A stretch of 26,312 nt of DNA from a virus: positions 1-26,312 of IMG/VR virus record IMGVR_UViG_3300027736_000220, one strand, 5' to 3'. Position numbers and translations under genes: made by a program. The notes beneath the pieces are model-generated. The model was not told the origin of the DNA and ran no database searches. It was given only the letters and a program-made list of their open reading frames with translations. Shown here one piece after another: positions 7,879 through 23,404 of this stretch. Numbering within the stretch: the first letter of the stretch is position 1; every line of letters begins with the position of its first letter.

Positions 7879-9192
7879 ATGGCTGTAACGTATACCTTTT
7901 CTACGCAGAGTGGGTCTATACCGCTGGCACAACTAGATGCCAACTTTGCTACGCCAATCACGATTGGCAATACGTCTGTCCAGTTAGGCAATACGATCAC
8001 CACGCTCAACAACATTACCCTGGCAAATACGACTATCAGCAGTGGCAATGTCACGCTGACAAACGTGTCTGTTACTACGGCTAACGTTACTACCGCAAAT
8101 ATCACAAATGCGGTTATCGGTACTGCAAACGTCACGACAGCTAATGTCGGTACGTTGACGCTGACAAACGCTCTAGGAACTGCGTCTGGCGGTACTGGAC
8201 TAACGTCGTTTACGTCTGGCGGTGTTGTCTATGCCAGCAGCGGTAGTGCTTTGACCACTGGGTCTGCGTTGACTTGGGATGGCAGCACGTTTTATGTAAA
8301 GCCTACTGGTGCTCAATTTGTTACGGGCGCAACATTTGCCAAAATTGAAAATTTGTCTGGAGCGTCTGCTAGTTTCATCATGGCAGATACTACTGATAGC
8401 GCAACCATTAAAAATATTGCTTCAAGCCTTGCGTTTATTAACAGCGGTACCGAAGGAATGCGCCTGACCAGCACAGGGCTGGGTATTGGGTTGGGCGGGA
8501 GTTCTCCCGGTAACAGACTTCACGTGCAAGGCTCTGGTGATGTTGCCCGGTTTACCAACGGCTCAAACAGCGCCTACTTTGCATTGGATTCGTCTGGTTT
8601 CACGTTGTTCACAGGCGCAGGGCAGACTGGCAACGGTTTGTACGCCAAAGCATCTGACAATTCTTTACAACTGTGGACAAACAGTAGCGCAAAGGTTTAC
8701 CTCGACTCCTCCGGCAACCTGCTGGTAGGGCAGACGGGACAAGGGCCAGCAAATTCATACAGTATGTGTTATGGGGTTGGCAACACTGGTGGGCTTGACC
8801 TGAGCCACATTAGTGGGTCTGCTAGTGGAACCATGTATGCGCGGTTTAACTACAACGCTACCACAATTGGCTCTATTACCCAATCCGGTACAGCAGCGGT
8901 TTTGTACAACGTCACCTCTGACCAGCGCCTGAAAGAAAACATTCAAGACGCTGATTCTGCTTCGTCTTTGATTGACTCTTTGCAAGTACGTAAGTTTGAC
9001 TGGAAAACAGATAACACTCACCAGCGTTATGGATTTGTAGCCCAAGAGATTGTGTCTGTTGCGCCAGAAGCGGTTCATCAACCCGCAGACCCTGACGAAA
9101 TGATGGCTGTGGACTACTCCAAACTGGTCCCAATGCTTGTTAAAGAAATTCAATCCCTTCGTATCCGTATTGCCCAACTGGAGGCCAAATAA
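7879..9192 (+). CDS. Tail fibre with C-terminal S74 chaperone domain
   Basis: Encodes 437 residues. The N-terminal 20 residues (SQSGSIPLAQLDANFATPI type) look like an attachment segment. Residues about 25-110 are Asn/Thr/Val repeats (TTANVTTANIT), typical of a trimeric fibre shaft. A beta-rich middle carries GGTGLTSFTSGGVVYASSG. The last 91 residues are a Peptidase_S74-type intramolecular chaperone: SDQRLKENI starts at Ser347, the expected site of self-cleavage, followed by YGFVAQEI and a C-terminal coiled coil (VKEIQSLRIRIAQLEAK). In this family the chaperone trimerises the fibre and then cuts itself off. The fibre probably binds a host surface glycan. Confidence 0.9.
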   Translation: MAVTYTFSTQSGSIPLAQLDANFATPITIGNTSVQLGNTITTLNNITLANTTISSGNVTLTNVSVTTANVTTANITNAVIGTANVTTANVGTLTLTNALGTASGGTGLTSFTSGGVVYASSGSALTTGSALTWDGSTFYVKPTGAQFVTGATFAKIENLSGASASFIMADTTDSATIKNIASSLAFINSGTEGMRLTSTGLGIGLGGSSPGNRLHVQGSGDVARFTNGSNSAYFALDSSGFTLFTGAGQTGNGLYAKASDNSLQLWTNSSAKVYLDSSGNLLVGQTGQGPANSYSMCYGVGNTGGLDLSHISGSASGTMYARFNYNATTIGSITQSGTAAVLYNVTSDQRLKENIQDADSASSLIDSLQVRKFDWKTDNTHQRYGFVAQEIVSVAPEAVHQPADPDEMMAVDYSKLVPMLVKEIQSLRIRIAQLEAK

Positions 9193-9532: not shown

Positions 9533-10681
9533 ATGTTAAAGACAGTATCCACAAGTGGGGGAGGAGGTGGTGGTGGCAACATTTCTAGTGTTACCGCAAC
9601 CACTCCACTAGCATCTAGCGGTGGAAGCACCCCAGATATTAGCCTGAGCGGTCAGGTCTCTGTTGCTAACGGTGGAACTGGAAAGGCAAACCTCACGCTT
9701 AACAACGTCATTCTCGGTAACAACACCGGGGCTGTTCTTTTTGTAGCACCAGGCACCGCCGGTAACGTACTTACCAGCAACGGAACCACTTGGACTAGCA
9801 ACGCTGCTGCCGGTGGTGGAGGTTCTGGAACCGTTACTACTGTATCTGTAGTCAGCGCTAACGGACTTGCAGGTACGGTTGCCAACGCTACGACTACTCC
9901 TGCCATTACTCTGTCTACCAGCGTCACCGGCCTGCTAAAAGGCAACGGAACTGCCATTTCTGCGGCTAGTAGCGGTACTGATTACGCTCCAGCAACATCT
10001 GGCTCATCTATTCTGTACGGCAACGGGTCTGGTGGGTTCTCTAGTGTAACCATTGGCTCTGGATTAAGTTTCTCTACCGGCACACTGTCTGCAACTGGTG
10101 TTGGGTCTGGCACGGTTACTAGTGTTGGGTTGGTTGCACCAGCTATATTTACGGTTACTGGATCTCCGGTAACGTCATCTGGCAACTTAACTCTTGCCTA
10201 TTCTGGCACTGCTTTGCCTGTGGCTAACGGTGGAACTAACTCTACGTCAGCAAGCATTACTGCGTTTAATAACATCACGGGTTACACGGCTGCTGGCGCT
10301 ACCGGAACAACTAGTGCCAACTTGGTATTTTCAACAACACCAACGCTGACCAATCCAACCGTCACCAACTATACAGAAACGCTGTATACAGCCAATACCA
10401 GTACGGCAATCACGGTAGATCTGGCTAACGGTACGGTTCAGAAACTTACGTTGACTGGCAATGCAACGATCACAATGCCTACTGCTACGGCAGGTAAGTC
10501 TTTTGTGATCATTCTGGCCCAGGATGCTACTGGTAGCAGAACTGTTACTTGGTCAACGGTTGTGTGGCCTTCTGGCACTGCGCCTACCATCACCAGCACG
10601 GCAAGCAAGAAAGACATTTATTCTTTCTTTGCTGACGGAACAAGCTGGTACGGCACCACTATTGGACAGAACTACACATAA
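9533..10681 (+). CDS. Gly/Ser/Thr-rich tail fibre protein
   Basis: Encodes 382 residues with GAGG before ATG 9533. The N-terminus has a run of seven Gly. The body holds strings common in phage fibres: VSVANGGTGKANLTLNNVIL, GSGTVTSVGLVAPAIF and ALPVANGGTN. The last 110 residues differ: TVQKLTLTGNATITMPT and SFVIILAQDATGSRTVTWS, a beta-rich module resembling the C-terminal domains of other fibres. It is probably a second fibre, or a distal fibre segment that pairs with the preceding genes. Confidence 0.75.
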   Translation: MLKTVSTSGGGGGGGNISSVTATTPLASSGGSTPDISLSGQVSVANGGTGKANLTLNNVILGNNTGAVLFVAPGTAGNVLTSNGTTWTSNAAAGGGGSGTVTTVSVVSANGLAGTVANATTTPAITLSTSVTGLLKGNGTAISAASSGTDYAPATSGSSILYGNGSGGFSSVTIGSGLSFSTGTLSATGVGSGTVTSVGLVAPAIFTVTGSPVTSSGNLTLAYSGTALPVANGGTNSTSASITAFNNITGYTAAGATGTTSANLVFSTTPTLTNPTVTNYTETLYTANTSTAITVDLANGTVQKLTLTGNATITMPTATAGKSFVIILAQDATGSRTVTWSTVVWPSGTAPTITSTASKKDIYSFFADGTSWYGTTIGQNYT

Positions 10682-12666
10682 TGTTTGCCGCATCTAAATC
10701 TGGGAAAGCCGCAGCCGCAGCCGCCGCGACAGACCCGTATTTTCCGTATGTTCCGCTACTGCTGAACACTACCAGCACTAACGGGCAGCAGAACAATACA
10801 TTCCTAGACTCATCTACAAATAACTTCACAATCACCCGCAACGGCACACCCACTCAGGGAGCGTTTACGCCGTATCAGCCTAGCGGGTATTGGTCTAACT
10901 ATTTTAATGGCACTACTCAATACGTAAGTGTTGGTGGAACCACATCTTTATCTGCAAATTTTACAATAGAGTTTTGGTTTTTCCCATCTTCCTCTGCAAA
11001 CAATAATTTTTTTGGTATAGATGACACGCAAAATCCAAATTCTTTAGCTTGCACATATAATGCAGGCGGTCCATCTATTAATGTTTTTGCTGATGCTGGA
11101 ACTCCAATTAGCAGCGGCGCCCCAGTAGTTTTAAATTCTTGGAATCACGTAGCATTAGTTAGGAGTAGTTCTACTGTAACCGTATATGTAAATGGGGTTC
11201 AAAAAGCCACAGGAAGCGTTCCCAACTCTATTAGTGGTTCTTTGCAAATTGGAAGATGGTTAGACTCCGGTTCGTACACAAATGGTATTACTGGGTACAT
11301 GTCTAATTTTAGAGTCTCAAATACCAACATATACAGCGGAAGCACTTTTACAGTTCCAACTTCTCCATTAACGTCCTCTGCAAATACTTTATTATTAACC
11401 CTACAAGACAATAGAGTAAAAGACAATTCTTCAAGTCCAAAAACATTAACTGTTTCTGGTTCCCCGCCAGTCCAAGCCTTCCAACCCTTCTCCCCGGCGG
11501 CATCGTACAGTGCTGCGACGTATGGGGGGAGTGGGGTATTTAATGGGAGTACGGATTATTTAAGTCTTGCTGACAACGCGGCACTACAACTTAGCACTGG
11601 TGATTTTACAATTGAAGGATGGTTTTACATTTCTGGAGCCACTTCAACTGCATATAATTTAATTAGCAAAGGTGCTGCGGCTACAGGATGGTCATTAAAT
11701 ACCACAACCGGCGCAAGAATTCAGTTTAGTTATACGGCATCAAATTTGACGGGGTCGACTACTACTCTTGTGGCAAATGCGTGGTATCACATTGCTGTAG
11801 TTCGTTCTGGAAGCGCATCTGGAAATTTAAAAATTTATCTTAATGGCGTTCAAGAAATTGCAAGCGCAGGCGCGGTTAATGACAATTTTAACCAAACTAG
11901 CACAATGTACATTTCTGCTAGTAGAACCGCCACTGTTCCGTTAAATGGATATTCTTCAAATATTCGTGTAGTAAAAGGCACCGCAATCTACACCGCCGCC
12001 TTCACACCTCCAACCATCCCCGTCACCGCAGTAAGCGGCACCTCCCTCCTCACCAACTTTGGCAACGCCGGAATCTACGACGCTGCTTGGCAGAATAATG
12101 CCCTGACGGTGGGGGATGCTCAGGCCAGCACCACACAGTACAAGTGGTCGCCTACGAGCATGAAGTTTGATGGGACGGGGGATGGATTAAAAGGAACGGT
12201 TACAACCAATGTAACCCCTGTTAGTGGCGACTTTACTTGGGAAGGATGGGTTTACTTTAATACATTGGCATCTGCCCAATGTTTAATTGGTGTTGGCAAT
12301 TCCGCAGACAGAACAATTTTGTATTTTGATAATTCAACTGGTTTAACATATGTTGTTGCCAGAAGCGGATCCAACCAGATATTGGCTTCTCAAGGCTCAA
12401 CTTCTGGTTGGGCGACTAGCACTTGGTATTATTTTGCTTTAACTAGAAGCGGCAACGTATACACCGTTTATCGCAACGGTACGTCTATTGCAACAACCAC
12501 TTCTTCATACGCTCAATCAGACCTTAGTCAACCAATAACGGCTGGGTATAGCGATTGGTCAACGTCTAATTTGACCTTAAATGGATATCTTCAAGATATA
12601 CGCATCACCAAAGGCGTGGCCCGCACCGTCACCACCACGCCAACCGCAGCATTCCCAACGAGGTAA
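10681..12666 (+). CDS. Triple LamG-domain tail fibre / adhesin
   Basis: Encodes 661 residues; ATG 10681 overlaps the previous stop as TAATG. After an Ala-rich start (KAAAAAAATDPYFPYVPLLL) come three concanavalin-A-like LamG jelly-roll domains at about residues 73-219, 285-437 and 493-646. Each shows the set: DFTIEGWFY-like strand, W-[NY]-[HY]-[VIF]-A-[LV]-[VT]-R, [VK]-x-[VI]-Y-x-N-G, and a G-Y-x-x-[ND]-[FI]-R-[VI] strand. Such domains bind glycans, so receptor recognition is likely. The domain cores are clearly AT-rich and the linkers GC-rich (see findings). The gene is followed by a fibre-assembly chaperone, which supports a fibre role. Confidence 0.85.
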   Translation: MFAASKSGKAAAAAAATDPYFPYVPLLLNTTSTNGQQNNTFLDSSTNNFTITRNGTPTQGAFTPYQPSGYWSNYFNGTTQYVSVGGTTSLSANFTIEFWFFPSSSANNNFFGIDDTQNPNSLACTYNAGGPSINVFADAGTPISSGAPVVLNSWNHVALVRSSSTVTVYVNGVQKATGSVPNSISGSLQIGRWLDSGSYTNGITGYMSNFRVSNTNIYSGSTFTVPTSPLTSSANTLLLTLQDNRVKDNSSSPKTLTVSGSPPVQAFQPFSPAASYSAATYGGSGVFNGSTDYLSLADNAALQLSTGDFTIEGWFYISGATSTAYNLISKGAAATGWSLNTTTGARIQFSYTASNLTGSTTTLVANAWYHIAVVRSGSASGNLKIYLNGVQEIASAGAVNDNFNQTSTMYISASRTATVPLNGYSSNIRVVKGTAIYTAAFTPPTIPVTAVSGTSLLTNFGNAGIYDAAWQNNALTVGDAQASTTQYKWSPTSMKFDGTGDGLKGTVTTNVTPVSGDFTWEGWVYFNTLASAQCLIGVGNSADRTILYFDNSTGLTYVVARSGSNQILASQGSTSGWATSTWYYFALTRSGNVYTVYRNGTSIATTTSSYAQSDLSQPITAGYSDWSTSNLTLNGYLQDIRITKGVARTVTTTPTAAFPTR

Positions 12667-12669
12667 GCA

Positions 12670-13092
12670 ATGTTACTTGCCAATCAAGACCTGATCATTA
12701 AAGACCACACAGAGTGGTTTCCCAACACTTCGTTTGGTGACCGTGGACCTACTCTAGACTGGATAGCAGACCAAGGGTACTACGTCATCACCGTGTGGAA
12801 GCCCTATAACCATGCAACTGAAAAACTGGTTCCTGCTACGCCACACCTGTATGAAGGGATGTGCTGCACGGTTGATGTAGAGCCTAAAACAGAACAAGAG
12901 TTGAAAGAACGGATTAGTAATGAATGGACGGCTATACGGCAGCAGCGTAACCGTCTGTTATCCGAATCTGACTGGACTCAGTTAGCAGATTCACCTGCTG
13001 ACAAAGATAAATGGGCTGTTTATCGGCAAGAATTGCGGGATATTACGACCCAAGAAGACCCATTTTCTATTGTCTGGCCTGTTATAGACTAA
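12670..13092 (+). CDS. Tail fibre assembly chaperone (Phage_tail_APC-like)
   Basis: Encodes 140 residues with GAGG placed before ATG 12670. Residues 86-139 carry the signature of the Phage_tail_APC type: RQQRNRLLSESDWTQLADSP, then KWAVYRQELRDI and a closing WP. The N-terminal half (PNTSFGDRGPTLDWIADQG) is also found in such proteins. Members help neighbouring fibres fold or trimerise, and the gene follows the three fibre genes directly. The adjacent LamG protein is the likely partner. Confidence 0.85.
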   Translation: MLLANQDLIIKDHTEWFPNTSFGDRGPTLDWIADQGYYVITVWKPYNHATEKLVPATPHLYEGMCCTVDVEPKTEQELKERISNEWTAIRQQRNRLLSESDWTQLADSPADKDKWAVYRQELRDITTQEDPFSIVWPVID

Positions 13093-22666: not shown

Positions 22667-23404
22667 TTAAGGCGCTGGGATAAGTCCACCCTCGAACAGG
22701 TAAGACCCGTAGTGTCCCAGGCGTACCCAAGGTGCTGCGTAGACCTTGTGACCGTGCTTCCTGGCGATCGTGCAGAAGGCAAAGTCCTCTGACAGCAGAC
22801 GATGGTCTACAACAGGAACCGGGAAGTATTCGTGAATCTTGTCCCGCTTCATCGTTCCTGCTGTGTCTAGCACATCGTTGTAGTACCAGCGTACACGCCT
22901 CTTGAGGTTCTGGAAGACTTCCCTCTTGATGAGCATGAAGCCAGTACCGCCGTTAGCGATCTCTAGCGGTTCATGGGCTGGAACCTTAACCTCTCCTTCC
23001 TGGCCTACAAGGTTAACTACCAGAGCGCCGGTGTAGTTCTTGAGTTGATCTACAGGAACTCCGTTAGCGGCTGCTGAGGCTACCTGTTGCCAGTTAATCT
23101 CCTTCTTGGGGTAGATTCCGCAGATAATGTCCTTGTCTGCTTTCACCATCGAGATAACGTCAGCAGGGTTGAACCGGATATCTGCGTCTATGAACATCAG
23201 GTGGGTGCAGTGCTTGTGAGTTAAGAACTGCTGCACCATCGCGTTCCTAGCCCTCTGGATGAGGCTTTCGTTGAACATGAAGGATACGGATAGTTCCATG
23301 CCATTGTCTTTGATAGCGGGGACTAGAGACAGGATGGACTGCATATAGAACCCTGTCCCCATGCCACCGTACATGGGCGTAGCTACGAATATATGATTTT
23401 TCAT
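22667..23404 (-). CDS. GT-A-type glycosyltransferase
   Basis: Encodes 245 residues. The N-terminus MKNHIFVATPMYGG, then HLMFIDADIRFNP with a D73-A-D75 motif, is the nucleotide-sugar and metal site of GT-A glycosyltransferases. ESLIQRARNAMV between them is also common to these enzymes. ANGGTGFMLIKREVF and VDHRLLSEDFAFC follow, matching the acceptor-side motifs of GT2-like enzymes. Its ATG overlaps the stop of the GT-B-type gene upstream as ATGA, so the two are coexpressed. The target may be a virion protein, a host polysaccharide or DNA; the sequence does not say. Confidence 0.8.
   Translation of the reverse strand: MKNHIFVATPMYGGMGTGFYMQSILSLVPAIKDNGMELSVSFMFNESLIQRARNAMVQQFLTHKHCTHLMFIDADIRFNPADVISMVKADKDIICGIYPKKEINWQQVASAAANGVPVDQLKNYTGALVVNLVGQEGEVKVPAHEPLEIANGGTGFMLIKREVFQNLKRRVRWYYNDVLDTAGTMKRDKIHEYFPVPVVDHRLLSEDFAFCTIARKHGHKVYAAPWVRLGHYGSYLFEGGLIPAP

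What the first reader, a model, noticed from the sequence alone, without database searches (positions are those of the whole stretch)
10897..12666. LamG gene is a base-composition mosaic: AT-rich domain cores, GC-rich linkers
Counted rows of 60 bases: cores at 10981, 11041, 11341 and 12301 give about 33, 40, 35 and 33 percent GC, whereas the linker row at 12001 gives about 58 percent and the last row at 12601 about 67 percent. The shifts coincide with LamG boundaries. Inference: the jelly-roll cores are exchanged as cassettes through conserved linkers, which would change host range by module swapping.
Basis: partly seen in the sequence, partly recalled or inferred. Interest (0 to 1): 0.7.

Follow-up and report, generated by a model that had tools for sequence, protein, structure and literature searches.

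The report
Phage fibre gene with swappable lectin domains
A phage tail-fibre gene is built like a rack with three sugar-binding-type slots: the connecting DNA stays nearly the same between related phages while the domains in the slots are replaced whole, and the replaced pieces show up as AT-rich patches in the gene.

Summary
Gene 10681-12666 (661 aa, three Laminin_G_3 domains, followed by a tail-fibre chaperone gene) has synonymous third-position GC (GC3) of 0.265 in cores and 0.54 in linkers. Synonymous-codon shuffling never reproduces this (0/20,000), and no other gene in the window shows it. In relatives whose backbone is 92-98% identical, cores 1 and 3 are completely different (about 45% nt) while core 2 and the linkers are 90-99% identical. 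In others core 1 is shared (79% identity at fourfold sites) while the linkers are near saturation (38-46%). Identity of cores among genes with similar linkers is all-or-nothing, and cores also move between slots. This is whole-domain replacement, not gradual divergence. The AT shift recurs in 41/41 distinct homologues scored and is smaller where a domain has stayed put. Recombination through conserved linkers fits best but is inferred. Host-range change was not tested. Why the composition differs (AT-richer donors or GC-elevated linkers) is unresolved; in the window the linkers, not the cores, have the less typical codon usage. This is a clear new variant of known receptor-binding-protein module shuffling.

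The parts
10681..12666 (+). Three-slot LamG gene (661 aa), inferred tail fibre / receptor-binding protein
   Evidence: Laminin_G_3 PF13385, three stretches, E 2.5e-46; next to a tail-fibre assembly chaperone gene
10681..10893 (+). N-terminal framework (resident): MFAASKSG...DSSTNNFTITRNGTPTQG...
   Evidence: 91-95% nt in L005/L006/L007/L011, sharp end at 10893 in all four; GC3 0.56 for 10681-10887
10894..11468 (+). Exchange block 1: LamG core 1 (about 10903-11313) plus AT-rich first half of linker 1-2
   Evidence: 42-46% nt in L005/L006/L007/L011 between 90+% flanks; 90.5% nt in L001/L003; GC3 0.23 for 10888-11460
11469..11565 (+). Conserved linker 1-2 (VQAFQPFSPAASYSAATYGGSG)
   Evidence: Part of the high-identity stretch beginning 11438-11469 in the near relatives; GC3 0.68 for 11461-11535
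11566..12038 (+). Exchange block 2: LamG core 2 (about 11539-11967)
   Evidence: 99.5% nt in L005/L006/L010/L011/L018 but about 45% in L001 (11628-11970) and L003 (11566-12038); GC3 0.24 for 11536-11976
12039..12179 (+). Conserved linker 2-3
   Evidence: 90-99% nt in close relatives, 75-76% in L001/L003; GC3 0.72 for 11977-12180
12180..12624 (+). Exchange block 3: LamG core 3 (about 12166-12603)
   Evidence: 37-46% nt in all seven close relatives compared; best counterpart is core 1 of L007, 76% nt
12625..12666 (+). Conserved C-terminal end (TTPTAAFPTR)
   Evidence: 94-97% nt over the last 39-65 bases in L005/L006/L011; GC3 0.76 for 12601-12663
12670..13092 (+). Tail-fibre assembly chaperone gene directly downstream
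   Evidence: Phage_tail_APC PF16778 E 9.8e-17; phrog_4912 tail fiber assembly

Best explanation
The gene encodes a phage tail fibre or receptor-binding protein with three LamG (concanavalin-A-like) domains held in a conserved framework (N-terminal anchor, two linkers, C-terminal end). Phages exchange individual LamG domains, independently per slot and sometimes between slots. The most likely route is recombination between co-infecting phages or with prophages, with the conserved linker DNA on either side serving as the homology. Framework and cores therefore have separate histories. Cores come from a large and on average AT-richer pool and the framework is resident, so the gene shows GC-rich linkers and AT-rich cores. 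SHOWN: the composition mosaic beyond amino acids; independent replacement and reuse of whole domains with conserved framework DNA; slot switching; sharing of framework and cores between phages with no detectable backbone similarity; a smaller GC deficit in resident domains. INFERRED: homologous recombination in linkers as the molecular step; AT-richer donors; change of receptor or host specificity as the advantage.
For: Sharp drops from 91-99% to 37-46% nt at recurrent positions (10893; 11437/11468; 12124-12183; 12576-12624) against relatives with 92-98% identical flanks. All-or-nothing core identity: of 70 gene pairs with framework >=80% nt, core 1 is at 0.50-0.60 in 59, at 0.6-0.8 in 0 and >=0.8 in 11; linker 1-2, not used for selection, is never below 0.6. 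Window versus L001: core 1 keeps 79% identity at fourfold sites where the N-terminal framework has 38% and linker 2-3 has 46%, so core 1 was shared after the lineages split. Slot switching: L026 core 1 = L031 core 2 at 95.7% nt; window core 3 = L007 core 1 at 76%. L030 and L036 share core 1 at 100% nt and framework at 86-96%, have an unrelated core 2 (0.55), no nt match in 7 kb of flank, and at protein level only the LamG gene and the downstream gene (68%) match. In the GC-rich framework clade (L021-L038) the resident core 3 has GC3 0.69-0.78, near the framework, while most replaced cores 1 and 2 have 0.28-0.55. GC deficit versus residence: Spearman -0.54; resident 0.14, replaced 0.28.
Against: Codon usage in the window does not mark the cores as foreign. 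Fit to the backbone is near typical for exchange blocks (-0.03) and worse for the framework (-0.18). Core 2 of the window group is shared by close relatives yet is as AT-rich as the others, although at 99.5% nt it is also more alike than most of the framework (mostly 91-96%), which fits a recent spread. The residence correlation is not corrected for shared ancestry and leans on core 3 of one GC-rich clade. No recombination event or recombinase was observed. Assembly chimeras in metagenomes cannot be fully excluded, though eight of these genes recur identically in two or three separate contigs.
Confidence: 0.88

Rival explanations
1. The cores diverge in place by rapid diversifying selection or local hypermutation (including a diversity-generating retroelement), with no exchange.
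For: LamG domains are the likely receptor-contact parts and would be under strong selection; the cores differ while linkers do not.
Against: Core identity is bimodal with nothing at 0.6-0.8 for core 1. The same core at 90-100% nt reappears in diverged frameworks and other slots. Shared cores are more alike at synonymous sites than their flanks. No reverse transcriptase in the 26 kb record.
Confidence: 0.04
2. The composition contrast has nothing to do with exchange: it is an intrinsic constraint of the LamG fold (codon choice for cotranslational folding, or amino-acid content) or a general within-gene codon pattern.
For: The contrast occurs in 41/41 distinct homologues scored, including AT-rich and GC-rich phages, and in an aligned average over 434 cores it starts at the domain edge. 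Core 2 in the window's group is shared by close relatives and still AT-rich.
Against: Not amino acids. In L021-L038 the resident core 3, with the same fold, has GC3 0.69-0.78 while most replaced cores in the same gene have 0.28-0.55. The AT-rich block in slot 1 extends about 150 bases past the fold to the exchange boundary.
Confidence: 0.2
3. The linkers are the shifted part: repeated recombination tracts centred on the linkers raise their GC by GC-biased repair, and the cores merely keep a more ordinary composition.
For: In the window the framework departs from backbone codon usage more than the cores do; linker GC3 exceeds backbone in 26 of 40 genes, fourfold sites 29 of 40.
Against: Cores lie below backbone in 37 of 40 genes with a larger mean shift (-0.148 versus +0.057). 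Linkers of the GC-rich clade keep GC3 0.75-0.83 in backbones from 0.49 to 0.86, which could equally be inheritance of a mobile framework.
Confidence: 0.2
4. Metagenome assembly chimeras join backbones and cores that do not occur together.
For: All relatives used are IMG/VR metagenomic contigs and shared linkers are just where assemblers can misjoin.
Against: Identical genes recur in separate contigs from different datasets; frames are intact in nearly all genes; shared cores are often not identical (76-95%), so not copies of one sequence; framework, core and backbone divergences scale differently.
Confidence: 0.05

Closest known systems
Modular receptor-binding proteins of tailed phages with ongoing domain shuffling (Smug et al. 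2023, PMC10684548)
   Same: Conserved part kept, binding domains replaced in near-identical phages; recent exchange in tail fibres and spikes, sometimes across families
   Different: There typically one C-terminal domain is replaced after a conserved N-terminus; here three internal slots are replaced independently between conserved linkers and a conserved C-terminus. The paper's main text does not mention lectin or laminin domains.
RBP genes with conserved DNA motifs flanking the exchanged domain (PMC10408124)
   Same: Conserved DNA on either side of the swapped domain, proposed there as recombination hotspots
   Different: Two or three short motifs around one domain in Escherichia phages; here whole linkers between three domains, with a composition contrast
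[quoted passage not shown]
   Same: Tail-associated array of carbohydrate-binding-type domains; in two lineages it grew by horizontal transfer of separate domains; gene region shared by phages whose other DNA is unlike
   Different: Different domain; no conserved-linker rack or GC contrast described (the words recombination and GC content do not occur in the main text)
Metaviromic islands in marine phages (PMC3909814)
   Same: Recognition parts within host-recognition genes vary between co-existing near-identical phages
   Different: Shown by read recruitment; no cassette replacement or composition pattern seen in the passages read
Phage DSL-LC04 concanavalin A-like lectin protein (OR003939.1)
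   Same: Best match in the phage collection, 39.8% aa over 95% of the query; lake phage; S74-type chaperone protein in the same region
   Different: Gene about twice as long (4098 bp); little DNA similarity (3% of a 7.9-kb query)

Membership tests
Laminin_G_3 (PF13385) domain proteins | Significant match to the profile in each domain | tested here: met
   E 2.5e-46, three stretches; Foldseek best hits are laminin and neurexin LG/LNS arrays, E down to 7e-16, on a model of moderate confidence (mean pLDDT 70.6)
Phage tail fibre / receptor-binding protein | Lies in the tail-fibre region next to a fibre chaperone | tested here: met
   PF16778 gene starts 4 bases after the stop; S74-chaperone fibre gene upstream
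Phage tail fibre / receptor-binding protein | Binds the host surface / is in the virion | not testable with these tools
   Needs protein or virion work
Modular RBP evolving by domain exchange | Domain replaced between otherwise near-identical genes | tested here: met
Modular RBP evolving by domain exchange | Exchanged domain alters host specificity | not testable with these tools
   No hosts known for these contigs
Diversity-generating retroelement | Reverse transcriptase and adenine-directed changes in one variable repeat | tested here: not met
   No PF00078 match in the 26 kb record, which may be a fragment; whole domains are replaced, with length changes
Invertible tail-fibre segment (Gin/Cin type) | Alternative segment present in inverted orientation | tested here: not met
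   BLAST of the three cores on both strands of all then-fetched loci gave plus-strand hits only; no invertase search was made

The most novel reading that the evidence does not exclude
The LamG gene is a mobile rack: framework plus chaperone travels between unrelated phages, its conserved linkers act as dedicated recombination sites loading domains from a shared pool, and the GC3 difference between a core and its linkers is a readable clock of how long that domain has been resident, with the linkers themselves kept GC-rich by repeated recombination.
Probability: 0.15. Interest if true: 0.75.

Novelty: new variant of a known kind. Interest (0 to 1): 0.52.

Why it matters
It turns a composition oddity in raw sequence into a measurable footprint of domain exchange in a phage recognition gene. 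It offers a large natural data set (103 three-domain genes scored; 285 core families at 70% nt among 436 cores) in which slot, framework and donor pool can be separated. If GC deficit tracks residence time in general, recent receptor-domain acquisitions could be spotted in single genomes without relatives.

Tried and rejected
Amino-acid content as the cause: rejected by synonymous shuffles. In-place hypermutation or a diversity-generating retroelement: rejected by bimodal identity, core reuse and absence of a reverse transcriptase in the record. Inverted cassettes: none found. Highly-expressed-gene codon usage in linkers: on an MCP-versus-rest scale linkers look like ordinary genes and cores lower, but fit to whole-backbone codon usage put the framework, not the cores, as the outlier, so neither reading of 'foreign cores' was adopted from codon usage alone. 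Search of 84,980 bacterial and archaeal genomes for a cellular or prophage donor gave only distant LamG proteins (22-48% aa). DNA searches of cultured phages gave only short matches. Variable part of the neighbouring S74 fibre gene: exchanged too but not AT-shifted (GC3 0.47 against 0.51 constant), so exchange does not always leave this footprint. Nine literature searches in the open library found no report of this LamG rack or its GC pattern; subscription papers are not covered.

Full report
What is there. The window is a 26,312-base virus record with portal and major-capsid genes on the left, a tail-fibre region in the middle and an endolysin-like gene further right. Gene 10681-12666 encodes 661 residues with three Laminin_G_3 domains. 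It lies downstream of a fibre gene with an S74 chaperone domain (7879-9192) and directly upstream of a tail-fibre assembly chaperone gene (12670-13092, PF16778). An AlphaFold model from 29 relatives (mean pLDDT 70.6, pTM 0.44, so domain placement is not reliable) matches laminin and neurexin LG arrays in the PDB. The role as a receptor-binding protein is inferred from neighbours and domain type.

The observation. The row counts are exact. Third-position GC at synonymous codons is 0.54 in linkers and 0.265 in cores, and no synonymous shuffle of 20,000 reaches that difference. Among 15 genes tested only this one has strongly excess row-to-row variance, z = 7.1. A segmentation that knows nothing of domains finds breaks at 10888, 11461, 11536, 11977, 12181 and 12601 in its seven-segment form, although BIC prefers five segments with cores 1 and 2 merged. 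Label-rotation tests rank the core labelling 3rd and the exchange-block labelling 11th of 661 placements, so the fit is good but not unique.

Exchange. IMG/VR gave 80 relatives. Against L005, L006, L007 and L010/L011, with flanking genes 92-98% identical, cores 1 and 3 fall to 37-46% nt over blocks with recurrent edges, while linkers and core 2 stay at about 90-99%. Against L001 and L003 the pattern is the reverse: block 1 is shared at about 90% nt while cores 2 and 3 are different. At fourfold sites core 1 in window/L001 is 79% identical but the N-terminal framework is 38% and linker 2-3 is 46%, which vertical descent does not explain. In 70 gene pairs with framework of at least 80% nt, core 1 is either at the unrelated baseline (59) or at least 0.8 (11), with none between, and linker 1-2 is never below 0.6. 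Core identity correlates poorly between slots (Spearman 0.10-0.16) and framework segments correlate better with each other (0.42-0.55).

Mobility beyond one lineage. The same core occurs in different slots (L026 core 1 and L031 core 2 at 95.7% nt; window core 3 and L007 core 1 at 76%). L030 and L036 share core 1 at 100% nt and the framework at 86-96%, have unrelated cores 2, no nt match in about 7 kb of flank, and at protein level only the LamG gene and the gene after it correspond. The gene, with its downstream neighbour, can therefore move as a unit as well. Relatives with five to seven LamG domains exist (L039, L042, L045, L048).

Why the composition differs. The linker-over-core GC3 contrast holds in 41 of 41 distinct genes scored, 35 of them with z above 3, in phages from 43 to 62% GC. 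Cores are below backbone GC3 in 37 of 40 genes and linkers above it in 26. The best discriminating case is the GC-rich clade L021-L038. Its core 3 is conserved and has GC3 0.69-0.78, close to the framework, while most of the replaced cores 1 and 2 in the same genes have 0.28-0.55 with a few at 0.66-0.69. Over 50 genes the GC deficit falls with residence (Spearman -0.54; replaced 0.28, resident 0.14), without correction for ancestry. This favours an AT-richer donor pool with slow adjustment. Against a simple version, core 2 in the window's group is shared yet AT-rich, and codon fit to the window's backbone is worse for linkers than cores. Part of the contrast may therefore be a GC shift of the linkers. 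I leave this open.

Mechanism. Conserved linkers of about 60-210 bases at high identity on both sides of each core would give homology for recombination during co-infection. This is inferred; no recombinase was identified here, and the record may be a fragment. Whether a new core changes the host is not testable here.

Known or new. Shuffling of binding domains in phage receptor-binding proteins is well known (PMC10684548, PMC10408124), and horizontal transfer of single domains into tail-associated arrays is described for BACON domains (PMC6949934). What I did not find described is a LamG rack with three independently replaced internal slots, slot switching, and a composition footprint that weakens in resident domains. 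Hence: new variant of a known kind.

Noticed in passing
window 8145-9164: The neighbouring S74-chaperone fibre gene (7879-9192) also has a replaced part: L010, L005 and L011 match the window at 96-98% up to 8144/8261 and again from 9165, with almost nothing between. This replaced part is not AT-shifted.
   Followed up: partly
window 11539-11967: Core 2 is 99.5% identical in at least five relatives whose framework is mostly 91-96% identical to the window, which looks like a recent spread of one domain.
   Followed up: partly
L039, L042, L045, L048: Related genes with five to seven LamG domains (1,114 to 1,572 aa), so the number of slots varies.
   Followed up: no
L030 3285-3677 and L036 6276-6683: The gene after the LamG gene is conserved (68% aa) between two phages with otherwise unlike flanks but has no Pfam match; probably an undescribed fibre chaperone travelling with the LamG gene.
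   Followed up: partly
window 10236-10343: Short stretch in the upstream gene (9533-10681) that interrupts 94-96% identity in L005, L006 and L007 but not in L010/L011.
   Followed up: no
window 22667-23404 (-): Protein matching phrog_1574 of unknown function (E 3.7e-49) and, below cut-off, the Anp1 glycosyltransferase family.
   Followed up: no
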